Assembly: GCF_001598035.1 (NCBI RefSeq)
Contig: NZ_CP014835.1
Coordinates: 992,001 to 1,056,000, forward strand
Source of the DNA: Streptococcus halotolerans
Lineage (GTDB): Bacteria; Bacillota; Bacilli; Lactobacillales; Streptococcaceae
DNA: 64,000 nt
Direction of reading: 5' to 3'
Each line of letters starts with the position of its first letter. Position 1 is the first letter of the stretch. A model generated the notes under the pieces. It saw only the letters and a list, made by a program, of their open reading frames with translations, was not told the origin of the DNA and did no database searches. Shown one piece after another: positions 25,305 through 34,937 of the stretch. The position numbers and the translations under genes were made by a program.

Positions 25305-26804
25305 AGGGGTAAACTCCTCTCCATTTTGTTTGTGCAAGATAGCCAGTGCCACCTGTTGAATCTGATACCAGTGTCTAGGGTACCTCTGCCGGTGTTTCAG
25401 ATTACTTTCTAATTTCTTGACTAGATGAATGGGCACCGAATGCCCATCTAACAAAGCCGTGACAAGTTGCTGATACTGGTCACTTCGGAAGCTATCGTTG
25501 TCCAATTCCAGATAACGTTCTCTATCCGTTCCGTAAGCTGCTAAAATCATATCATTCAAACTTGGTGTTTTTATAACAAAGTTATTGCCCTGCTTTCTGC
25601 TTTCCCAACTGTAATTGTGCTGCCATCTTTCTAAATGTTGCAACAGTTCTGAAACCTGAAGGTGACGAAAATATTTCAGAGCAATTCGTCCATCATTAGT
25701 CTTATTTAAAATAGCTGCGTAATAGGTTGAAGCGTCACTAAATGTCTTCTTTCCGTGAATAAAGGACTGGTTAATCTCACGATTGGTCTTATCAATTGAA
25801 AAAACAGGTGTCTCTGTCTCATAAACATCAGGCAGCATGTTGTCCCAGTTGAAAACATCACTTTCTACAGACTTCGTCACATCAAGCTGACTGTCATTGG
25901 CTATATCATCACTAAACCAATTGATCATCTGCTGTGTTCCTCCCAACCAAACATGAGTTTGGTCATTTTCCAGCAAATATTTCGCCATCAGGTGAATCTT
26001 CTCAGAAGTCTGGGTGCCAACGGTAAAGACATCATCGCGCTCTCTAAAGCGACCTTTGTAGGTTTCGTTATTGTTACTAACCGAAATCAGTTTAGCATTT
26101 CCAATCAAGCCGCGATGCTTGGTTGCAAGAGTTTCTTTTCGTCCACTAATATTACAGATAATTTTATCGTCGTGATGACTTTCAACGTAAGCGATAAAGG
26201 CTTGGTGCAAGGCTTGATAATTAGTAACAGAGACTGTCCGATTACCAATAAAATGATCAATCTTAAATTCCAAAAAACACGTCGACAAATCAACTGTCTT
26301 TTCCTTATTGTCTGTCCCAACAGAGGTAACTTTCAAGCCTTCTCTTGTATAAGATTGACCATACAACGATTGACAAATCTGGGACAAAAATTCAGGTTGT
26401 AAGATAAATCTTTGGATAAGGCTCAGATAATCTTTGACTTGCTCATCGCGACAAGCGGCACGCCAGTTTTCCAATTGATTATGGTAAGCATCATACTGAT
26501 CTTGGTTTATTTCGGACACGTAATAGCTGAGTTTATCAACCAGAGGATGGGAGGCAGGATTCTTACCAGAACGTGCCACCGAATTAGATGTGACAGGAAA
26601 AATAATCGTTTCTTCTTTCCCTATATAATCGGCTTTAATAAACTTCCCCTCATTATCGAGAACAACTGAAATGATATTTTTTCCATTCGATTTAAGACTG
26701 GTATGATAAATTGGTAGCAATATCGTTCCCTTGCTAGCATTATCAACCCAACTCTCAGTTTCCGCATTTTCATAGGTTTTGAGTAGCGAGGTAAAGAAAT
26801 CCAT
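24912..26804 (-). CDS. cas8c: CRISPR Cascade large subunit Cas8c (Csd1)
   Basis: 630 residues, normal for Csd1/Cas8c, which reads the PAM (TTC in this subtype) and opens the target duplex. N-terminal WVDNASKGTILLPIYHT and the central FIHGKKTFSDASTYYAAIL and YNFVIKTP-like regions follow family pattern. The ATG shares one base with the cas5c stop (TGATG), with GGAGG 6 nt upstream. The last 130 codons can also be translated separately as Cas11c (see 24912-25304). Confidence 0.95.
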   Translation of the reverse strand: MDFFTSLLKTYENAETESWVDNASKGTILLPIYHTSLKSNGKNIISVVLDNEGKFIKADYIGKEETIIFPVTSNSVARSGKNPASHPLVDKLSYYVSEINQDQYDAYHNQLENWRAACRDEQVKDYLSLIQRFILQPEFLSQICQSLYGQSYTREGLKVTSVGTDNKEKTVDLSTCFLEFKIDHFIGNRTVSVTNYQALHQAFIAYVESHHDDKIICNISGRKETLATKHRGLIGNAKLISVSNNNETYKGRFRERDDVFTVGTQTSEKIHLMAKYLLENDQTHVWLGGTQQMINWFSDDIANDSQLDVTKSVESDVFNWDNMLPDVYETETPVFSIDKTNREINQSFIHGKKTFSDASTYYAAILNKTNDGRIALKYFRHLQVSELLQHLERWQHNYSWESRKQGNNFVIKTPSLNDMILAAYGTDRERYLELDNDSFRSDQYQQLVTALLDGHSVPIHLVKKLESNLKHRQRYPRHWYQIQQVALAILHKQNGEEFTPMLDHKYSNRSYLFGRLLAIYELIETQRYALEGNQDRITNAERYWTAYTGQPAKMMTLLENKVKPYEEVLKLNRPGLWKKLDKERAEVIELLTPAFSAKEFTDALDYKFIFGYYAEKKYYYTSKANMGSEE

Positions 26805-27541
26805 CAGTGACCTCCTTTTTCCTTAGCTTCATCAGCTAGGTAACTATCATATTCTTCATCAACAGACTTGACTTGTCCTGGCGTCTTAAAGGCATAACTG
26901 GACAAGGTATTCATGATTTCACAATCTTCTTGCTCCTTAAAATGAACGATGCCATTTTCCATGACTGTCTGAGTGAAATAGGACCGTAGTGGTGTTTTCT
27001 TATCGGTTGGATAAGCAAACGAATGAAACATAATACCGAAATCAATGGTCTGACCTTGATAAGAAGAAATGGCCGCGTCATACTCTTCTTGACTAATCTC
27101 GTCGACTCGTCCGTAGCATTCTCGTGTCCCCAAAAAAACATCCCTGCGTCCCCCTTTTTTTAAAGACCGCGACATAATAGCTTCATGCTTTTTAGGTAAA
27201 CGATCTTGCTCAAGATCGGAACGATTGCTATTCCACGTAAAATGAAACTTAATCAAGTATTCCACATCACTCAGATAAGAAACATAACTCAGATCCGCTC
27301 CGTAGTCAGCAAGCAACGCACGAACCCCATGCAATTCCGTCTGAATTTGATTAATCACTTTAACCTCTGTCACCACATTAACGATAGTTGGTTTATAGTA
27401 TACAGCATCAACCACACCCTGCAGCGCCTGACGAGTAGGAATCAGGTAAGAGCTACGCTCTCCCCCACCCTTGGTTGCAGGGTTGGTGAACAACGCCAGA
27501 TCTCCTCTCACACGCATGTAAAAATTTCGTGAACGATACAA
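26804..27541 (-). CDS. cas5c: CRISPR Cascade Cas5c (Cas5d), crRNA-processing endoribonuclease
   Basis: 245 residues. In type I-C, which lacks Cas6, Cas5c cuts the repeat at the base of its hairpin and keeps the 11-nt 5' handle. Candidate catalytic residues by analogy with B. halodurans Cas5d are Tyr48/Tyr49 (DAVYYKP) and Lys118-His119 (LPKKHEAIM). FLGTRECYG is a family motif. The start is TTG at 27541: AGGAGG lies 8 nt upstream and the encoded MYRSRNFYMRV is the expected N-terminus, so the rare start is convincing. The upstream gap holds the crRNA-like regulatory region. Confidence 0.94.
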   Translation of the reverse strand: MYRSRNFYMRVRGDLALFTNPATKGGGERSSYLIPTRQALQGVVDAVYYKPTIVNVVTEVKVINQIQTELHGVRALLADYGADLSYVSYLSDVEYLIKFHFTWNSNRSDLEQDRLPKKHEAIMSRSLKKGGRRDVFLGTRECYGRVDEISQEEYDAAISSYQGQTIDFGIMFHSFAYPTDKKTPLRSYFTQTVMENGIVHFKEQEDCEIMNTLSSYAFKTPGQVKSVDEEYDSYLADEAKEKGGH

Positions 27542-27610
27542 ATTGGATACCTCCTTAGTTTGATAGAGACATTTAGAAAAGACAATAATGTCAACGACAA
27601 AAAGAATTTG

Positions 27611-27654
27611 GGAAGAGAATCGTGCTAAACTCTTCTCTTCCGTTCTCTTTTTTT
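27611..27654 (+). terminator. Hairpin with + strand U-run between small ORF 2 and cas5c
   Basis: 9-bp stem GGAAGAGAA/TTCTCTTCC (27611-27619, 27633-27641), followed on the + strand by GTTCTC and seven T. On the minus strand the same stem is followed, after about 6 nt, by a run of five U, so it may also act as a leaky attenuator before cas5c. No gene is known to me that would need a + strand terminator here. Confidence 0.4.
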
Positions 27655-27765
27655 CTTCACTGATTGAGAGCGATAGACTTTCAAAAATGTCGCTGATGCC
27701 ATAATGATTGCTGGCATTTTATCAATTAGCTTACTCAACAGTTGAAAAAGATAGTCGTCGATAAG
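27625..27765 (-). CDS. Small ORF without a standard start codon, upstream of cas5c
   Basis: A 46-codon open frame, LIDDYLFQLLSKLIDKMPAI followed by a basic tail (KKKRERKRR), is preceded by an excellent Shine-Dalgarno (GAGGAGG, about 27771-27777). The codon at the right spacing, however, is CTT (27763-27765) and not ATG/GTG/TTG. A TTG ten codons in (27736-27738) is the first usual start and is too far from the SD. It may be a degenerated peptide gene, or use a non-canonical start. The predicted product is an amphipathic helix with a very basic C-terminus. Confidence 0.35.
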   Translation of the reverse strand, partial: LIDDYLFQLLSKLIDKMPAIIMASATFLKVYRSQSVKKKRERKRRV

Positions 27766-27895
27766 ATCTTACCTCCTCTATATTAATAAAACATGTCGCA
27801 CAATCTATGTGCTTTTTAACATCTCAATGTTCTTATACGATACACCTAGCTCACAAAAGGCTACTTGTTAGATTCCTAATATCACATCTTAACTC

Positions 27896-28021
27896 TTAAT
27901 CATAATCTCCTCTCAGCCAATTGAGTAAGGCTTTAGCTGTGACAATAAGAAGCATGATAGAACCTAGTGACATTACCATAAGAAATAGGAAGAATAATAA
28001 TTTTATTACAATTGATAGCAT
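27896..28021 (-). CDS. 41-residue single-helix membrane peptide, candidate toxin in the cas3-cas5c gap
   Basis: ATG at 28021 with AAAGGG 7 nt upstream; stop TAA at 27896-27898. The product MLSIVIKLLFFLFLMVMSLG plus SIMLLIVTAKALLNWLRGDYD is one long hydrophobic helix with a charged C-terminus, the shape of type I toxin or signalling peptides. I do not recognise the family. It is about 97 nt downstream of a promoter whose -35 adjoins the site matched by the crRNA-like RNA at 28272-28378. That context, not homology, suggests it may be repressed by Cascade. It could equally be a harmless leader peptide of the cas operon. Confidence 0.5.
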   Translation of the reverse strand: MLSIVIKLLFFLFLMVMSLGSIMLLIVTAKALLNWLRGDYD

Positions 28022-28124
28022 TGACGTCCCTTTCTATCTAGTTAAAGCTCCATTTTAGTTGAAACGAATACTCTTTAACTAACAAATACCTTTAGTATCA
28101 AAGAAGTTCTAATGACACAATACT

Positions 28125-28152
28125 ATTATATCACTTCTTAAATTATTATGAA
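28125..28152 (-). promoter_or_regulatory. Promoter of the small-peptide/cas5c-cas2 transcript
   Basis: Minus strand: -35 TTCATA (28147-28152), 16-bp spacer, perfect -10 TATAAT (28125-28130); start near 28117. It is the best promoter in the gap and reads into the 41-residue peptide gene and on toward cas5c. The TTC PAM and the protospacer-like site begin 2 bp upstream of the -35. Confidence 0.6.
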
Positions 28153-28153
28153 C

Positions 28154-28172
28154 TTCAGAATTGGAAGTATGC
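28154..28172 (+). promoter_or_regulatory. Protospacer-like operator matching the crRNA-like RNA
   Basis: TTC (28154-28156), the type I-C PAM, is followed by AGAATTGGAAGTATGC. The spacer-like part of the RNA at 28302 reads AGAATGGGATGGATGC. Positions 1-5, 7-9, 11 and 13-16 match; mismatches are at 6, 10 and 12. In type I Cascade, positions 6 and 12 are flipped out and do not pair, so the complete seed (1-5, 7, 8) is matched. Beyond position 16 the match is lost, which would favour binding without Cas3 cleavage. Confidence 0.7.
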
Positions 28173-28256
28173 ATATTTCGATAGATTATCATTGTCTCTC
28201 TCTGAGATGTTTTTGGTAATCAAGTGACTAACTTCATTTTAGAGGGGTCATTATTG

Positions 28257-28265
28257 TGGTATACT
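28257..28265 (+). promoter_or_regulatory. Promoter of the crRNA-like RNA (extended -10)
   Basis: TGGTATACT on the + strand, an extended -10 element (TGN plus TATACT). Only a weak -35 (TTTTAG, 28237-28242) is seen. Predicted start is about 28272, two bases before the repeat-like hairpin. Confidence 0.6.
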
Positions 28266-28271
28266 AGCCTT

Positions 28272-28378
28272 ATCATAACTATTGGTTATGTGGATTGAAA
28301 TAGAATGGGATGGATGCCCTTTCGTAACAGCAGCTAGCTTTTTTCTCTTAAAAGATAAAGCTAGCTGCTTCTTTTTTT
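28272..28378 (+). ncRNA. crRNA-like regulatory RNA (CreR/CreA type) with degenerate CRISPR repeat
   Basis: The predicted RNA is about 107 nt, antisense to the cas operon. It starts with hairpin CATAAC-TATTG-GTTATG (28274-28290; 6-bp stem, 5-nt loop), then TGGATTGAAAT (28291-28301). Loop length and the 11-nt handle are exactly those of the array repeat, while the stem bases differ but still pair, a sign of selection on structure. A spacer-like stretch (28302-28328) follows, and then a rho-independent terminator takes the place of a second repeat. Cas5c should process it to a guide with the canonical handle. Its seed matches a PAM-flanked site at the promoter of the adjacent operon. The class (CreA antitoxin of CreTA, or CreR-type cas autorepressor) is known from other CRISPR subtypes; assignment here is inference. 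Confidence 0.75.
28329..28378 (+). terminator. Terminator of the crRNA-like RNA, overlapping the cas3 3' end
   Basis: Perfect 13-bp stem AGCAGCTAGCTTT/AAAGCTAGCTGCT (28329-28341, 28357-28369) with a 15-nt loop, then TC and seven T on the + strand. On the minus strand no U-run follows, so it serves the + strand RNA. The last cas3 codons lie in the loop and distal arm. Confidence 0.8.
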
Positions 28379-30744
28379 ACCCCAATGACTTCGTCATAAT
28401 ACTCCTCTTGTAAAATCAATACTTCTCCATCTAAATAAGATTTGGTTGCAGCTAATAGCTCGTCGCCATTTCTAAGGTTGACAGTATAGGTCTGCAATTC
28501 CTTGAGAAGTTGCTTGATACGAAACCATTCTTCATTTGTTGGATAATCTGTGCTACTTAAAATATCTTCTAAAACTGGTATTGTCTCTTTGGCTTTACCA
28601 TAACTTACCAAAACACTGACGCTATCATCTTTAATGAGATTAATCTTATGGCCAGCTGTCTTAAACGACTGACACAGCATCGCTTGTGTTTTACCACCAG
28701 AAAACGTATTGCAACTGAGATAATCGTAACCTGTTTCGTTATCTCCGATAGGATAATCCATATCATTCTTATGATCGGCATAATATGTTTCAAAAAAGCA
28801 ATCGTTGAGCGATACAAGGTCAATTGGGGAATGATACTGCTTCATAATAGCTTCAGTCACATCTTTCTTATGCTTGATTTCCTTCAGACGCGACAAGCTT
28901 TCTTCATTTTCGGTCAGATTAACCAAAGTGACACGCCCTTTATGACGTTTACCTTCACGATTACAACGACCACTAGCTTGCACGATGGAATCAATCCCTG
29001 CATAAGATCGCACAACTTGTTCAAAATCAACATCAACCCCTGCCTCGATTAACTGAGTGCTGACACAAATCACAGGCACCCCCTCTTTGAGTAGTTCTTT
29101 GATTTTCTTAATCAAGTCCAGACGGTGCTGAGGACACATGTTAGTTGAGAGTTGGTATAGTGGACGATCAACTTGATTTTCCAGAATCCGGTAAAGGTTA
29201 TCCACGGATTTTTTAGTATTAAGAATAATCAAGCTTGATTTGTCCTCACTCAATACAAAATCAGCAACGTCAGTGAGACTGGTTTTACCATCAGTGTCAT
29301 CAAATTTCCAAAGTTCTGTCCGTGTAAATCCTTCCAATTCTTCCGCTGACAATGTGACAATATCTGCCTCATTTGCATAAGAAAGCCGGTGTTTAACCTC
29401 ATCAGATCCGTATGTAGGTTGCGTTGCTGTACACAAAACAATCGTTGCGTTCATCACTTGACTGAGAAAATTAAGAGTTAAGTTAAAGAGCGTAGTCACC
29501 TCAATTGGCAAGGATTGGACTTCATCCAAAATAATAATACTATCAATCAAACTAGAAAAGCGACGGATATTGCTAGACTTGGTCTTAACAAGCGTTTGAA
29601 AAAACTGTACCATGGATGTTAAAACAACAGGACTATCCCAGCTATCTAAAAGATAATCAGCCAATAGCGCTGCTTTTTCATCACCTTGCTCCTCTTTGGC
29701 GGTGCTTTCTTTCACAACGTTAGAGTGGTGTTCAAGCACCCCTTCTTCACCTATGACGCCTTTTATCGCGCTAGCATTTTGCTCCAAAACGGATAAGAAT
29801 GGTGTAATGTAGAAGAAACGCTGCTTGCCTTGCTTTGTCATCTGTTGTGTCGCATAGCGCAAGCTAAGATTAGTTTTTCCTGCACCTGTCGGCAAATTGA
29901 GGCGGTAAACACCTGTCGTATCCGTAGCACCACGTGCCTTTACACGATCCGCAATAGCAGTACGAATACGATTTAGAGGTGTCTTAGGTTGCCCAAAACT
30001 AGCATACAAGTCTTCAACTGATTGCTGATAACCTTGAATGAGTTTTCGTTTTTTAGTCAAACTAGGCGGTTCGAGAATGAAATCGTAGGCGTTAATGGTG
30101 TCTAAAATATCCGCGTTTTTAAGCAAGGACAGGTACAATCTCACTATGCAGCCTGCATAAAAAGCTTCCTCACTCTTATCTCTAGGTGACAATTTTTCCC
30201 ACAATAATTGAAAATTATTCCAAGCTTGCTCCAGTAGATCTCGCAAATAAGGATACCCATAATCGGATAAAGACGTTTCCAACTCCTCTGCATACTGGAG
30301 AACATCTGGGTTAAAAGCGTAATTTTCTCGCGTTTGCATTATCCGCTGAAAAGTTTTATTATAACGAAAACTTTGAGCGCTCTGACCATCGTCAAATGGG
30401 ATATCATACATGCCATGATGGGCAGCGATAACATAAGTTACGATGTCTCTAAAAAAGCAGCGTTTTTTATCAGCGAATGCTTCTTTCGGAAAACTCTGAA
30501 CCATCATACCATAGAGATACTTGGCACCTGCATAAGAATGGTCTACCTGCAAGTTAGGTTTCTGACAAAGCTTAGTTTGAAACAAAGGATCAGACTTGCC
30601 TAGGTCATGGTACAAGCCTAAAAGAAAGAGGATATCCCCTTGTCCAATTGATGAAGCACTTTGTCTAGCATCAACGGCCACGTTGAAAGAATGTTCCTTC
30701 AATGTCTGTTTTTGATTCATTTCTTGATTGTAATGTGCCCACAT
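28348..30744 (-). CDS. cas3: CRISPR-associated helicase/nuclease Cas3
   Basis: 798-residue fusion of an HD nuclease and an SF2 helicase that degrades the target strand after Cascade binding. HD motifs: His18, H46-D47 (LYHDLGKSD), and AAHHG near residue 115. Helicase motifs: Walker A LPTGAGKTN, DEVQS box (ILDEVQSLP), SGRCNREG motif VI. ATG 30744 (MWAHYNQEM) is preferred to the far-upstream in-frame TTG. It is separated from cas5c by 806 bp, unusual for I-C, and its 3' end overlaps the convergent crRNA-like RNA terminator. A TACAAT -10 lies about 45 bp upstream, so it probably has its own promoter. Confidence 0.95.
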   Translation of the reverse strand: MWAHYNQEMNQKQTLKEHSFNVAVDARQSASSIGQGDILFLLGLYHDLGKSDPLFQTKLCQKPNLQVDHSYAGAKYLYGMMVQSFPKEAFADKKRCFFRDIVTYVIAAHHGMYDIPFDDGQSAQSFRYNKTFQRIMQTRENYAFNPDVLQYAEELETSLSDYGYPYLRDLLEQAWNNFQLLWEKLSPRDKSEEAFYAGCIVRLYLSLLKNADILDTINAYDFILEPPSLTKKRKLIQGYQQSVEDLYASFGQPKTPLNRIRTAIADRVKARGATDTTGVYRLNLPTGAGKTNLSLRYATQQMTKQGKQRFFYITPFLSVLEQNASAIKGVIGEEGVLEHHSNVVKESTAKEEQGDEKAALLADYLLDSWDSPVVLTSMVQFFQTLVKTKSSNIRRFSSLIDSIIILDEVQSLPIEVTTLFNLTLNFLSQVMNATIVLCTATQPTYGSDEVKHRLSYANEADIVTLSAEELEGFTRTELWKFDDTDGKTSLTDVADFVLSEDKSSLIILNTKKSVDNLYRILENQVDRPLYQLSTNMCPQHRLDLIKKIKELLKEGVPVICVSTQLIEAGVDVDFEQVVRSYAGIDSIVQASGRCNREGKRHKGRVTLVNLTENEESLSRLKEIKHKKDVTEAIMKQYHSPIDLVSLNDCFFETYYADHKNDMDYPIGDNETGYDYLSCNTFSGGKTQAMLCQSFKTAGHKINLIKDDSVSVLVSYGKAKETIPVLEDILSSTDYPTNEEWFRIKQLLKELQTYTVNLRNGDELLAATKSYLDGEVLILQEEYYDEVIGVKKEAASFIF

Positions 30745-30850
30745 ATTCCTTATCCTCACGGTTAAAAATATTACCAATATTGTACAATAAAAACGCTTTC
30801 ATTTCTAGCTCCAATTTATAAAATTAAGCTAGACAAAAAAACAACGCACG

Positions 30851-31160
30851 TTATAGTCTCTTGAATTAAGGTTGAGACATCGTCACTTTCGCCTGGCCCT
30901 ACTCAAGTGCTGCCCTCCTCTCAGCTCTTTATCTCGAAGTTAATCATTCGACTATATGTCCCAAGACACTAAGAAGAGAATCATCAAAAATATCAAAGCT
31001 ATGGGGAGTTAGAACCTAATCTAGTTCATTTCTGTGAACTATTAACTGAAGTAGAAAACATCAACTACTCTGATACGACGGTTAGAAAACTGCTCTATCA
31101 AGCTGGACACTTATCGCCAAAAATGCAACGAAAAACGAAGCGACGCTTGACAAATAGTAG
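30851..31160 (+). pseudogene. IS1202-type (ISNCY) transposase relic
   Basis: 30851-30950 matches, in inverse orientation, the segment 53387-53485 (both contain TTGAATTAAGGTTG and CCTACTCAAGTGCTGCC). This part is probably an IS end. From 30973 an open stretch reads KYQSYGELEPNLVHF, CELLTEVENINYSDTTVRKL and HLSPKMQRKTKRRL, like the helix-turn-helix domain of IS1202-type transposases. The catalytic core is missing. It occupies the gap between cas3 and the perR operon terminator. Confidence 0.55.
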
Positions 31161-31203
31161 AAAAAACACCCCAAACATTAGATATCGCGTCTAATGTTTG
31201 GGG
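31161..31203 (-). terminator. Terminator of the perR operon
   Basis: Minus strand: perfect 14-bp stem CCCCAAACATTAGA/TCTAATGTTTGGGG, 7-nt loop, then GTTTTTT. It lies 70 bp past the small membrane protein gene. Confidence 0.8.
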
Positions 31204-31272
31204 CATGTCACTCTCAAGTTTATTGATCACTTCAAACCATAAGAAGACAACATTACCTCTTCTTATTTTATC

Positions 31273-31467
31273 TTAAAATAGGGAGTCGTCTTCTAACTCG
31301 TCCTCTTCTTGGCATCGCTCTTCTTCTGTTTTTGACGGTACTTCCTCTACCTTAGCATTGGGATCTGGCTTAAAAATATTGAATACTTTAACTAAAGCGA
31401 TAGCTTTAATAATCGAAAAAGCAAGTAGAATGAGAGCAATAATTTGAATAGATGACATGTTTCTCAT
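31273..31467 (-). CDS. Small membrane protein with acidic tail, downstream of perR
   Basis: 64 residues: one hydrophobic segment (IQIIALILLAFSIIKAIALV, about 7-26), a short basic/polar linker, and an acidic C-terminus (EEERCQEEDELEDDSLF). I do not recognise the family. The ATG at 31467 overlaps the perR stop (ATGA), suggesting translational coupling; the next ATG (31458) is an alternative. Orientation with the tail inside is likely but not proven. It shares the perR terminator. Confidence 0.6.
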   Translation of the reverse strand: MRNMSSIQIIALILLAFSIIKAIALVKVFNIFKPDPNAKVEEVPSKTEEERCQEEDELEDDSLF

Positions 31468-31925
31468 AACCTTTCTGCCTGTTCTTTTTGACAATTACCA
31501 CAAATACCGTAAATCATAAATTGACTCTTCGTAATTTCATAACCTGTTTGAAAGGCCGCCTCTCGAGCAATCTCTGGCAATTCGATTTCCAAATCACTAA
31601 TTTTCCCACAAATCTCACAAATAACATTAATATGATCATGTCCCTTATAATCAAAATAAGTGGTTTGATCATTAGTCACTTTTATCTCTGATACAAAACC
31701 CTCATCGACCAAGACGTGGAGATTATTATAAACAGTCGCCAGACTGAGATTGGGATAACGGAGACTCAAATCCTTATAAATCTGCTCAGCACTAGGATGG
31801 TGATTGGCAGCAATCATATACGCTAAAATCGCTTTTCTAGACTCAGTAATGCGACTATGTTTTTTACGAAAATGCGCTAGAACAGCCTGATATTCTGCTT
31901 CTAACTCTTCAGTTAAGTCAATCAT
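31464..31925 (-). CDS. perR: Fur-family peroxide-stress regulator (PerR type)
   Basis: 153 residues: N-terminal winged helix with the recognition segment SLATVYNNLHVLVDEG, and a C-terminal metal domain with YFDYKGHDHINVICEICGK and GICGNCQ. Structural zinc cysteines are C103-X2-C106 and C142-X2-C145. Candidate regulatory ligands are His43, Asp92, His98 and Asp111; position 100 is Asn where B. subtilis PerR has His93, as also in the streptococcal GHQHLN form. It represses peroxide- and metal-response genes until its iron-bound His is oxidised. It heads a short operon with a small membrane protein, 66 bp downstream of a surface-protein gene. Confidence 0.82.
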   Translation of the reverse strand: MIDLTEELEAEYQAVLAHFRKKHSRITESRKAILAYMIAANHHPSAEQIYKDLSLRYPNLSLATVYNNLHVLVDEGFVSEIKVTNDQTTYFDYKGHDHINVICEICGKISDLEIELPEIAREAAFQTGYEITKSQFMIYGICGNCQKEQAERL

Positions 31926-31991: not shown

Positions 31992-34898
31992 TTAGTGGTC
32001 TTTCCTCAGAAAATAAAATCCGACCAAACTGTAGGCAATGATCATGATAACCATTAACAGATGAACTAGCAGTGAACCTAAGTCATCCTTCTTTTTTATA
32101 GAGAAAAGATTGTCTACTGTGCCATCAAATAAGCCTATATCACTATCATCTCTCATAGTGGTTTTTCTAGCTTCTGCTGAATGTTGCGATTTGTCATTTG
32201 TCATTGTCTCTAATTCAGATTGATCAAAGGAAGCATCATTCCCCTCCTCTGAAGAATAAACCGAACCACTAAAGCGTTCTAAAACTTTTTGAGCTATTTT
32301 GACTGACACATCTAAATTATTCGAAGTAGAGACTACAGGAACACTTGTTACGTAAAACCATCGGCCTTGCCTTTGACTACTATTATCTTCAGAAATAGAA
32401 AGTCCAACTGGTATTATCATTGAAGTCTTTTCTTCCAAAGCAGGAGACTCGATGGCTTCCATTTCTTCCTCTGAACGGCTATCCGTCTCATCAGCATCGT
32501 CACTATCTGCTACAGCATCTAAATGAAGATAACTAGCAGGAATGAATCCCTCGCCACTATCAAAATCATCACTATTATTAACAGAGTCATTTTCCGCAAG
32601 AGTACTGGGTAACTCTGGTAAAACAGGAGGATCGCCATCAATCAAGCCATCACTAGATGAGGAGGCTTCAGATCCGTCATTGGGATCTTGCGGAGACTGA
32701 GAATCCTCTACTTCGTCTGTAGTTATTGGGTACTCAGGATCATTATCCGGAAGAGTACTAGGTAATTCTGGTGAAACAGGAGGATCGCTATCAATCAAAG
32801 CATCATCACTAGGTGTGGAGACTTCAGATCCGTCGTTGGGATCTTGCGGAGACTGAGGATCCTCTACTTCGGCTTCATCAATTGGTAGATCAGTTTTATC
32901 ATCTTTATCATCCAAGGATGTATCGGGGTGAGATGGTGAAATAGGAGACTCATTAGTAACAAAGCCATCGTCTCTAGGTGTGGAGACTTCTGAACCATCG
33001 TTGGGATCTTGCGGAGACTGAGAATCCTCTACATCGTCTGTAGTTATTGGGTACTCAGGATCATTATCCGGAAGAGTACTAGGTAACTCTGGTGAACGAG
33101 GAGGATCGCCATCAATCAAGGCATCGTCTCTAGGTGAGGGATCTTCAGGTTGGTCGATAGGATCCTGCGGAGACTGAGAATCCTCTACTTCGGCTTCATC
33201 AATTGGTAGATCAGTTTTATCATCCAAGGATGTATCGGGGTGAGATGGTGAAACAGGAGGATCGCCATCAATCAAGCCATCATCACTAGGTGTGGAGAAT
33301 TCAGATCCGTCGTTGGGATCTTGCGGAGACTGAGGATCCTCTACATCGTCTGTAGTTATCGGGTGCTCAGGAACATTATCCGGAAGAGTACTAGGTAACT
33401 CTGGTGAACGAGGAGGGTCGCCATCAATCAAGCCATCGTCTCTAGGTGAGAGATCTTCAGGTTGGTCGATAGGATCCTGCGGAGACTGAGAATCCTCTAC
33501 TTCGGCTTCATCAATTGGTAGATCTATTTCATCTTTATCATCCGAGAGTGTATCGGGATGCTCTGGTGAAACAGGAGGATCGCCATCAATCAAGCCATCA
33601 TCACTAGGTGTGGAGAATTCAGATCCGTCGTCGGGATCCTGCGGAGACTGAGGATCCTCTGCGTCGCCAGCATCCTTTAGATTTTCGTCTTCTGATAAGT
33701 CAGGAAGATTGTCCGAAAGTAATGGCGGTAAGATAGTCAAACCATACTCATTTTGAGCACTTTGACCATCAGAATCATTGACAGAAATCCGCACGCGATA
33801 ATCCCCAGGATTACGGAATTGTACTGAAGTCGTGCCACCTTCTAGACTAGTAATTTCACCTGTGGATAGATTTTCATACGATAAGGTTTCAAGACGTGTT
33901 GTGTAGCTATCACTATTTGAAAAATCATCTTCCTTATCAAAGATTGTGACTGCCGACAATAAATCAACAACCTCATCAACTTTTGCCGTAACTGTTTTCG
34001 TAGCAATGCCAATAGTAGGTGCCGTATTTATAATCCAATCACTAACAGTAGCATACAACTTTTCTGAATACGTAGCTGTCACTGTATATAAACCTTTTTG
34101 AAAAACGGAGATTTGCTCTTTCGTCACTGGAACATAAAGGGCAATTGAGCCATTCTCCCTTTGAATAGATTTAACAACAAATGTGCTATTTCCCATTTGA
34201 GACTGATGCACATAAGGCTGCCCTCGCCAGGTGTCTGTGACCTCATCATAAGTGATTAGCAGGTCATGTCTATTATCCTTTTCAACCAATGTACCGTCAG
34301 TTTCAGAATAATAGCTAGCGCCTGAAAACTCAAGAACAATGGCTTTGACATTTGGCGAAATTAATAAAGGAATATCAGATCTAGTTGTTGAAATTGGAAA
34401 ATTAGCTAATGCTATTTTTGTGGGATCACTAGCAGCTTTTTGATCAAAACCAACCGCGTCCCACAAATCAAATTGGCTTACTTCTTTATCCGTTATCGTT
34501 TTTGTATCTTGAGTAGAAGATTCACTTACTAAGTCTGAAGCATTACTTGTTTCAGCAGTATGTTCAGATAATGTTTGATCAGCTAATGAGCTCTTATCAT
34601 CACTCCAAATCTTCTCATCAGCGGTCGACTCAATGGTGTTTTCTACCATTTTAGAAGCATCTTGATTGGTATCGTTCTCAAGACGGCGTTCTTCTGAATT
34701 ATTTGGAATTGCCGTCTCACTCATTACAGAAACAACAGATTCATCTGACCCTGTTAACTCATCTGCATACCCTTGCCCCGATACCATTCCCGCTGAAAGA
34801 GCTGCCATCGTAAATAATGCAGCAAGGCTCCGAGTGGTTCTATATTCTCCAAAACATAACGGCAACACAAAATTGGAACGAGACTTTTCTCCCTCCAT
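31992..34898 (-). CDS. Large secreted/membrane-anchored protein with Asp/Pro-rich tandem repeats
   Basis: 968 residues. The N-terminus is basic, followed by a signal-like hydrophobic stretch (TTRSLAALFTMAALSAGMV). Then come a Ser/Thr/Glu-rich region (about 45-135), a folded part with Ig-like segments (to about 390, e.g. GDYRVRISVNDSDGQS), and seven QSPQDP-containing repeats (about 405-760). A second small domain (WFYVTSVPVV) precedes a C-terminal membrane helix LVHLLMVIMIIAYSLVGFYF ending FLRKDH. No LPXTG is present, so anchoring would be by the helix rather than sortase. ATG 34898 is preferred over TTG 34937 (AGGAGG upstream, spacing long). -10 TATAAT at 34970-34975. Function is not recognised; host contact is a guess. 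Confidence 0.7.
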   Translation of the reverse strand: MEGEKSRSNFVLPLCFGEYRTTRSLAALFTMAALSAGMVSGQGYADELTGSDESVVSVMSETAIPNNSEERRLENDTNQDASKMVENTIESTADEKIWSDDKSSLADQTLSEHTAETSNASDLVSESSTQDTKTITDKEVSQFDLWDAVGFDQKAASDPTKIALANFPISTTRSDIPLLISPNVKAIVLEFSGASYYSETDGTLVEKDNRHDLLITYDEVTDTWRGQPYVHQSQMGNSTFVVKSIQRENGSIALYVPVTKEQISVFQKGLYTVTATYSEKLYATVSDWIINTAPTIGIATKTVTAKVDEVVDLLSAVTIFDKEDDFSNSDSYTTRLETLSYENLSTGEITSLEGGTTSVQFRNPGDYRVRISVNDSDGQSAQNEYGLTILPPLLSDNLPDLSEDENLKDAGDAEDPQSPQDPDDGSEFSTPSDDGLIDGDPPVSPEHPDTLSDDKDEIDLPIDEAEVEDSQSPQDPIDQPEDLSPRDDGLIDGDPPRSPELPSTLPDNVPEHPITTDDVEDPQSPQDPNDGSEFSTPSDDGLIDGDPPVSPSHPDTSLDDKTDLPIDEAEVEDSQSPQDPIDQPEDPSPRDDALIDGDPPRSPELPSTLPDNDPEYPITTDDVEDSQSPQDPNDGSEVSTPRDDGFVTNESPISPSHPDTSLDDKDDKTDLPIDEAEVEDPQSPQDPNDGSEVSTPSDDALIDSDPPVSPELPSTLPDNDPEYPITTDEVEDSQSPQDPNDGSEASSSSDGLIDGDPPVLPELPSTLAENDSVNNSDDFDSGEGFIPASYLHLDAVADSDDADETDSRSEEEMEAIESPALEEKTSMIIPVGLSISEDNSSQRQGRWFYVTSVPVVSTSNNLDVSVKIAQKVLERFSGSVYSSEEGNDASFDQSELETMTNDKSQHSAEARKTTMRDDSDIGLFDGTVDNLFSIKKKDDLGSLLVHLLMVIMIIAYSLVGFYFLRKDH
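32640..33670 (-). repeat. Tandem coding repeats in the surface-type protein
   Basis: Seven units of roughly 155-175 bp, each coding for VED(P/S)QSPQDP, a D/N-rich stretch, then (G/A)LIDGDPP and SP(E/S). Two unit types alternate (NDGSE and IDQPED). DNA identity between units is high, so the copy number should vary between strains by recombination or slippage. Confidence 0.85.
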
Positions 34899-34937
34899 AC
34901 AACCGTCTACCTCCTGCTTATTTCGTTTGTCAGCCAA

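What the first reader, a model, noticed from the sequence alone, without database searches (positions are those of the whole stretch)
28272..28378. A crRNA-like RNA gene encoded opposite the cas operon in a type I-C locus
Seen directly: on the + strand there is an extended -10 (TGGTATACT), a hairpin CATAAC-TATTG-GTTATG, then TGGATTGAAAT. After a 27-nt stretch comes a perfect 13-bp terminator with seven T. The 11-nt TGGATTGAAAT is identical to the handle of the array repeat, the loop length is the same (5 nt), and the stem differs in sequence but still pairs. This is a degenerate repeat kept for structure, standing alone outside the array and in the opposite orientation. Established knowledge: CreA (antitoxin of CreTA modules) and CreR (cas autorepressor) are mini-CRISPR RNAs in other subtypes. 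Inference: Cas5c processes this RNA and loads it onto Cascade as a regulatory guide. I know of no report in streptococcal I-C loci.
Basis: partly seen in the sequence, partly recalled or inferred. Interest (0 to 1): 0.95.

Follow-up and report, generated by a model that had tools for sequence, protein, structure and literature searches.

The report
CRISPR guide RNA silencing its operon
In a streptococcal CRISPR immune locus, a stand-alone gene shaped like a CRISPR guide RNA matches a DNA site beside the predicted start point of transcription for small peptide genes and the CRISPR surveillance-complex genes, so it is predicted to make that complex switch off its own production, and would release a possibly toxic peptide if the complex failed.

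Summary
The + strand element at 28257-28378 (extended -10, hairpin, 11-nt repeat handle, 27-nt guide, 13-bp terminator) recurs antisense in the cas3-cas5c gap of 19 of 26 Streptococcus genomes with Cas5c. In 19 of 19 loci the guide's best site in the gap carries TTC, the type I-C PAM; it mostly matches at positions 13-16 and mismatches at 6 and 12, and it lies at the -35 of a strong predicted promoter facing cas5c (best promoter in 18 of 19, second-best in one). Guides tried on gaps of loci with different guides never score as well (0 of 238). In the window's genome the target is the only site with fewer than 3 mismatches. In nine loci that promoter leads straight to cas5c (CreR-like); in ten, the window included, a small peptide frame lies between (CrePA-like cargo). 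Five of 55 other Bacilli loci show the same RNA and target. Best reading: a type I-C CreR/CreA-like guide repressing a peptide-plus-Cascade unit. Transcription, processing, repression and toxicity are untested.

The parts
28238..28265 (+). Promoter of the crRNA-like gene (-35-like TTTAGA, extended -10 TGGTATACT)
   Evidence: By my reading, TG stands one base before the -10 in 17 of 19 loci (not L045; in L041 the printed stretch does not reach the promoter).
28274..28290 (+). Hairpin derived from the repeat (CATAAC-TATTG-GTTATG)
28291..28301 (+). 11-nt repeat handle TGGATTGAAAT
   Evidence: Identical to the array repeat; TGGATTGAAAT or CGGATTGAAAT in 19 of 26 gaps
28302..28328 (+). Guide region; nt 1-16 pair with the target except positions 6, 10 and 12
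28329..28378 (+). Intrinsic terminator of the crRNA-like gene, overlapping the 3' end of cas3 on the other strand
28154..28172 (+). Target: PAM TTC 28154-28156 and matched stretch 28157-28172
   Evidence: 13 of 14 scored positions match; only site in the genome with fewer than 3 mismatches
28125..28152 (-). Predicted repressed promoter TTCATA-16-TATAAT (TG before the -10); its -35 begins next to the PAM
27896..28021 (-). ORF1, 41-aa strongly hydrophobic peptide, ATG start behind AAAGGGA
27625..27762 (-). ORF2, 45-aa peptide frame with basic tail; likely start ATC, 9 nt after GGAGG
26804..27541 (-). cas5c, first Cascade gene after the repressed promoter
   Evidence: TIGR01876
24060..26804 (-). 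cas8c (26804-24912) and cas7 (24908-24060)
   Evidence: TIGR01863 and TIGR02589
28348..30777 (-). cas3, upstream neighbour in cas sense
   Evidence: TIGR01587 and TIGR01596
19900..21914 (-). CRISPR array, 31 copies of the handle

Best explanation
The element is a stand-alone crRNA-like gene whose guide matches a TTC-flanked site beside a predicted promoter facing cas5c, and it likely directs the locus's own Cascade to sit there and repress that promoter. Predicted steps, none tested: the RNA is made from the + strand; Cas5c cuts at the base of the hairpin and keeps the 11-nt handle; Cascade forms on the short guide and binds the target through about 16 nt of partial pairing, enough to block the promoter but too little to lead to destruction by Cas3. 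The repressed unit in this window would carry two small peptide frames and then cas5c-cas8c-cas7 and the genes behind them. The core role is therefore likely autorepression of Cascade (CreR-like), seen bare in nine relatives. Here and in nine other relatives a peptide frame is part of the same predicted unit; it may be a membrane-active toxin that would appear when Cascade is lost or blocked, for example by an anti-CRISPR (CrePA-like). Shown directly by sequence: the anatomy, its conservation, the guide-target matches and their mismatch pattern.
For: Element kept in 19 of 26 genus genomes with Cas5c, always antisense in the cas3-cas5c gap. Best guide site in the gap has TTC in 19 of 19 without requiring a PAM (14 positions); scores 12-14 of 14, against 4-10 of 14 for 238 guide-gap pairs with different guides, none as good as the guide's own. 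Position 6 matches in 7 of 19 and 12 in 4 of 19, while 13-16 match in 17, 18, 18 and 15 of 19. A tested I-F CreA has its three mismatches at positions 6, 11 and 18 and needs pairing at 2-5, 7-9 and 13-17 (PMC10097628, passages). The target lies within -11 to +15 nt of the -35 of the best-scoring cas-facing promoter in 18 of 19. Genome-wide the window's target is the only site with fewer than 3 mismatches. Five other Bacilli loci have the RNA and a TTC target that 0 of 500 shuffled guides equal. The peptide frame has dN/dS 0.13-0.41 in the five pairs compared.
Against: No expression, cleavage or repression data. The promoters are consensus calls by my own weights, with no shuffled control. Seven of 26 genus genomes with Cas5c lack the RNA. 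In the weakest test (10 positions, any PAM) shuffled guides did as well in 30% (L030), 25% (L048) and 5% (window) of trials. The 19 loci are related and hold 13 different 16-nt guides. Against a toxin: nine of 19 RNA loci have no ORF2-like frame; L032 and L041 keep the frame without a good start; L033 keeps a peptide with a start although its cas8c is frameshifted in this draft assembly; no Pfam or NCBIfam family is hit. In the window about 480 nt and two peptide frames separate the promoter region from cas5c, so control of cas5c by this promoter is inferred.
Confidence: 0.66

Rival explanations
1. Pure cas autorepressor (CreR): the RNA only tunes Cascade level, and the peptide frames are leader or neutral sequence without toxic action.
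For: Nine of 19 RNA loci have the target promoter directly ahead of cas5c with no ORF2-like frame. The five non-streptococcal loci with RNA and target also lie in the cas3-cas5c region. L033 keeps the peptide with a frameshifted cas8c.
Against: The peptide frame is shared by ten loci and eight have a ribosome site and a start codon; dN/dS below 0.5 in the five pairs compared; hydrophobic stretches.
Confidence: 0.4
2. Pure toxin-antitoxin (CreTA or CrePA): the promoter serves only the peptide or a toxic RNA and ends before cas5c; cas5c has another promoter or reads through from cas3.
For: Same layout as the Acinetobacter I-F CreTA in the cas3-csy1 gap: divergent mini-ORF behind the CreA target (PMC10097628, section 6 read). 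Hairpins lie between ORF2 and cas5c, strongest in L030-L032.
Against: In nine relatives the same kind of target promoter points at cas5c with nothing ORF2-like between. No strong second promoter before cas5c in the window (L028 has one scoring higher than its target promoter).
Confidence: 0.2
3. Decaying orphan repeat left by an array rearrangement, without function.
For: The stem differs from the array repeat; in L041 array-like repeats sit in the gap.
Against: Handle, stem pairing and a guide-matched target kept in 19 of 26 loci with 13 different guides.
Confidence: 0.02
4. An RNA anti-CRISPR (Racr-like) that occupies Cas5c or Cascade as a decoy.
For: A solitary I-C repeat beside an anti-CRISPR gene in a Bifidobacterium prophage inhibits I-C immunity (PMC10651486, passages).
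Against: Here it lies inside the cas locus and has a matched target in the same gap; an exact pattern for the short-gap form found nothing in viral contigs (one pattern only).
Confidence: 0.03

Closest known systems
CreR, crRNA-like autorepressor of cas genes (review PMC12737573, section 9 read)
   Same: crRNA-like RNA; guide partly matching a site at a cas-facing promoter; would let Cascade repress itself.
   Different: Subtype I-C, where Cas5c and not Cas6 would process it; one degenerate repeat plus terminator; peptide frames between promoter and cas5c in ten loci. The review has no occurrence of I-C.
CreTA of Acinetobacter I-F (PMC10097628, passages and section 6 read)
   Same: Lies between cas3 and the first Cascade gene; divergent SD-led mini-ORF behind a PAM-flanked target; similar mismatch positions.
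   Different: Two repeats there, one here; CreT there acts as RNA with a 33-bp ORF; here the frames encode 33-45 aa peptides with signs of protein-level selection.
CrePA, protein toxin with CreA antitoxin (review PMC12737573, section 10 read)
   Same: A protein gene behind a promoter targeted by a crRNA-like RNA.
   Different: CreP typically has a KilA-N domain; these peptides are 33-45 aa with no Pfam or NCBIfam hit.
Stand-alone repeat elements of Shmakov et al. 2023 (recalled; not held)
   Same: As I recall, they report stand-alone repeats with guides partly matching cas or cargo promoters in many type I loci and V-A.
   Different: Whether I-C or streptococcal cases are listed could not be checked.

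Membership tests
CreR | Repeat-derived hairpin and handle outside the array | tested here: met
CreR | Guide with limited complementarity to a PAM-flanked site at a cas promoter | tested here: met
   the promoter is predicted by consensus only
CreR | The targeted promoter drives cas genes | tested here: inconclusive
   Directly ahead of cas5c in nine relatives; in the window two peptide frames and about 480 nt lie between; no transcript data
CreR | RNA bound by Cascade and represses transcription | not testable with these tools
   Needs experiment
CreR | Generally not coupled with a toxin gene | tested here: inconclusive
   Nine loci without and ten with a peptide frame of unknown action
CreTA (type VIII) | Toxin is an RNA | tested here: inconclusive
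   dN/dS 0.13-0.41 in five pairs of the ORF2 frame points to a protein; an RNA effect is not excluded
CrePA | Protein toxin, typically with a KilA-N domain | tested here: not met
   No Pfam or NCBIfam hit for ORF1, ORF2 or four relatives; toxicity itself untested
Racr (RNA anti-CRISPR) | Encoded by a virus or plasmid | tested here: not met
   Inside the cas locus in 19 of 26 genomes; exact pattern absent from viral contigs
Ordinary CRISPR array | Two or more like repeats around spacers | tested here: not met
   One handle on the + strand, ended by a terminator

The most novel reading that the evidence does not exclude
One Cascade-guided promoter carries both the rescue and the penalty: when Cascade runs low, the released transcript makes a death peptide from a deliberately weak start codon (ATC, ATA or TTG, never ATG, in the eight startable ORF2 frames) and new Cascade subunits. 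A brief shortage is repaired; a lasting block by an anti-CRISPR or by cas damage lets the peptide build up and stops the cell. This would merge CreR and CrePA into a single timed circuit in type I-C, built on an older, Bacilli-wide, Cas5c-processed CreR.
Probability: 0.33. Interest if true: 0.88.

Novelty: new variant of a known kind. Interest (0 to 1): 0.75.

Why it matters
Type I-C is described as one of the most common CRISPR subtypes (PMC7684278, passages) and has no Cas6. A guide RNA kept at the same place in 19 streptococcal and at least 5 other Bacilli loci would show that Cas5c-made RNAs regulate their own Cascade, with an exact target, PAM and mismatch pattern ready to test. The peptide cargo, which gene callers would miss because of its start codons, could explain how some streptococci hold on to I-C systems and respond to anti-CRISPRs. 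It also suggests that deleting or blocking Cascade in such strains may have side effects.

Tried and rejected
Rfam search of 27000-31500: three matches, all below gathering scores and irrelevant. Peptides: no Pfam or NCBIfam family for six tested; the protein-database search with ORF2 found nothing; a search with a related peptide from elsewhere in the genus found 10 unnamed or hypothetical proteins. ORF1 relatives in the genus: apart from the window only L027, with stops, E 0.009; other hits at E 0.01-0.1 are not convincing. Phage copies: one exact pattern, no hit. Orphan-repeat and Racr readings were considered and set aside as given under rivals. Seven loci from other classes (L069-L075, two of them with little upstream sequence) showed no exact handle with a hairpin. 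The MAFFT hairpin alignment misplaced L041 and L085, so stem pairs were counted from the handle outward. My note gave the PAM as 28152-28154; the right place is 28154-28156. It also said 20 of 26 loci; the count is 19. No structure prediction was made.

Full report
What is there. The window holds a type I-C locus on the - strand: cas3, an 809-nt gap, then cas5c, cas8c, cas7, cas4, cas1, cas2 (families) and an array with 31 copies of the handle. On the + strand of the gap lies the element of the finding, confirmed base by base.

Conservation. Cas5c was found in 26 of 284 genomes of the genus, the window's own included. I fetched 6-18 kb around the other 25 and read all 26 cas3-cas5c gaps (in L040 the contig ends inside the gap). 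The antisense handle G(T/C)GGATTGAAAT is present in 19 of 26, with a paired hairpin of 4-7 bp before it in each of the 19; the seven without it (L038, L039, L043, L047, L049, L050, L051) have gaps of 49-139 nt. Counted outward from the handle, stem pair 1 is C-G in 19 of 19; pair 4 is A-T 16, G-C 2, C-G 1; pair 5 is G-C 15, A-T 2, C-G 1; pair 6, in the six stems that long, is C-G 2, T-A 2, A-T 2. The arms were chosen as paired stretches, so broken pairs could not appear in this count. On a Cas8c tree of 24 of the 26 (L033 and L044 left out because their longest cas8c piece was under 400 aa), the peptide label needs 3 changes, RNA-without-peptide 5 and no-RNA 4; all three together need 6, against a shuffled mean of 11.6 (0 of 200 as low). 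So the RNA has been lost or gained several times, and the peptide is clustered.

The target. Each guide was compared with its own gap, RNA gene excluded, on both strands. With a 14-position score (1-5, 7-11, 13-16) and no PAM requirement the best site has TTC in 19 of 19; TTC is 2.1% of trinucleotides there. With 10 positions (1-5, 7-11) it is 18 of 19, the exception being L033, whose TTC site scores 9 of 10. Own scores are 12 (2 loci), 13 (8) and 14 (9) of 14. Of 342 possible guide-to-other-gap pairs I tested the 238 with clearly different guides: scores 4-10, none as good as the guide's own. Shuffled guides, with TTC required and 10 positions, did as well in at most 1% of trials in each locus; without the PAM requirement they did as well in 30% (L030), 25% (L048) and 5% (window) and in at most 2.3% elsewhere, so the PAM and the longer match matter. 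Positions 1-5 and 7-11 were used to choose sites; the free positions show the pattern: 6 matches in 7 of 19, 12 in 4 of 19, 13-16 in 17, 18, 18 and 15 of 19, 17 in 6 of 19. Over 18 distinct guide-target pairs, positions 6 and 12 mismatch in 26 of 36 cells and 13-16 in 8 of 72 (Fisher P 2e-10, relatedness ignored). This is the every-sixth-base pattern of type I Cascade (recalled) and resembles what was measured for an I-F CreA (PMC10097628, passages). TTC is the complement of the GAA PAM used in a I-C study (PMC6519985, passages), and a listing abstract gives TTC for a Xanthomonas I-C system (PMC8406640). In the window, the PAM is 28154-28156 and the match 28157-28172. Genome-wide the pattern with up to 3 mismatches gives six hits: this one with 1 and five with 3, one of the five being the RNA gene itself; the reversed control pattern gives two.

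The promoter. By a consensus score of my own (no shuffled control), the best cas-facing promoter in the gap has its -35 starting -11 to +15 nt from the PAM end of the target in 18 of 19; in L028 it is the second-best, at +9. In the window TTCATA-16-TATAAT begins 1 nt from the PAM. The target is on the RNA strand in 16 loci and on the cas strand in L033, L037 and L041: the place is kept, the orientation is not.

What is repressed. In nine loci (L034, L035, L036, L040, L042, L044, L045, L046, L048) no ORF2-like frame lies between the promoter and cas5c; the few SD-led frames seen (L040, L045, L048) start in the RNA gene or cas3 region and look unrelated. This is the layout of CreR-like autorepression. 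In ten (window, L027-L033, L037, L041) a related frame of 33-45 aa lies between. Eight have a ribosome site and a start codon: ATC in 3, ATA in 2, TTG in 3; L032 and L041 have the frame without a good start. In L027 about 1.1 kb, with transposase-like frames by their look, separates promoter and frame. Five pairs give dN/dS 0.41, 0.13, 0.36, 0.27 and 0.33 (from; short frames, so rough). The peptides are small, most with one hydrophobic stretch, the window's ORF2 less so but with a basic tail; they hit no family and resemble by profile (probability 97) a 48-49 aa uncharacterised peptide family found elsewhere in streptococcal genomes. The window also has ORF1, 41 aa and strongly hydrophobic, with only a broken relative in L027. 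Hairpins between ORF2 and cas5c, strongest in L030-L032, may partly separate the two. In the ten peptide loci cas5c and cas7 match in one piece in 10 of 10 and cas8c in 9 of 10; L033 has a cas8c frameshift, real or a draft error.

Beyond the genus. Order and class searches gave Cas5c in 32 of 395 and 53 of 398 genomes, overlapping sets; loci were returned for 30 of each. Of the 57 different loci read, 55 are not Streptococcus. With one handle mismatch and a hairpin of at least 5 bp, 7 of 55 have an antisense candidate within 1500 nt upstream of cas5c; two loci also gave cas-sense matches that look like noise. Of the 7, five (L079, L085, L128, L140, L151) have a TTC site at 11-14 of 14 that 0 of 500 shuffled guides equal; L078 and L148 do not. 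I read only the upstream side and used this handle, so the count may be low.

Interpretation and limits. I put a Cascade-guided regulatory RNA at about 0.87. That it represses Cascade genes is likely; that the peptides are toxins is close to even, with L033 and the nine peptide-free loci against, and layout, selection and hydrophobicity for. Nothing was shown in cells here.

Known or new. CreTA, CreR and CrePA are known (PMC12737573, sections 9 and 10 read; PMC8501985 and PMC9458426, passages; PMC10097628). PMC12737573, PMC9458426 and PMC8501985 have no occurrence of I-C. Searches pairing I-C or Cas5c with CreA, CreR, CreTA and like terms listed no paper that by title or abstract start describes such an RNA in I-C; I read the listings, not all the papers. 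The two most relevant surveys, Shmakov 2023 and the 2023 CreR paper (both recalled), are not held, so earlier mention there cannot be excluded. Hence: a new variant of a known kind.

Noticed in passing
   Followed up: partly
L112, L114 and P0002-P0011: A 48-49 aa peptide family related by profile to ORF2, with its own promoter-like sequence; in L112 it lies next to a short gene that looks like a helix-turn-helix regulator.
   Followed up: partly
window 27762 and L027, L028, L030, L031: Likely start codons ATC or ATA behind perfect ribosome sites in the ORF2 family, invisible to standard gene calling.
   Followed up: partly
gaps of L029, L033, L037, L041: A conserved inverted repeat with GGGCC(C) at its centre directly after the ORF2 stop codon.
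   Followed up: no
L085 gap (another family of the order): A gap of about 800 nt between cas3 and cas5c with the RNA and its target, holding frames not identified here.
   Followed up: no
window 31992-34937: A 981-aa frame with long repeats of the DPQSPQDP type, likely a surface protein by its look.
   Followed up: no
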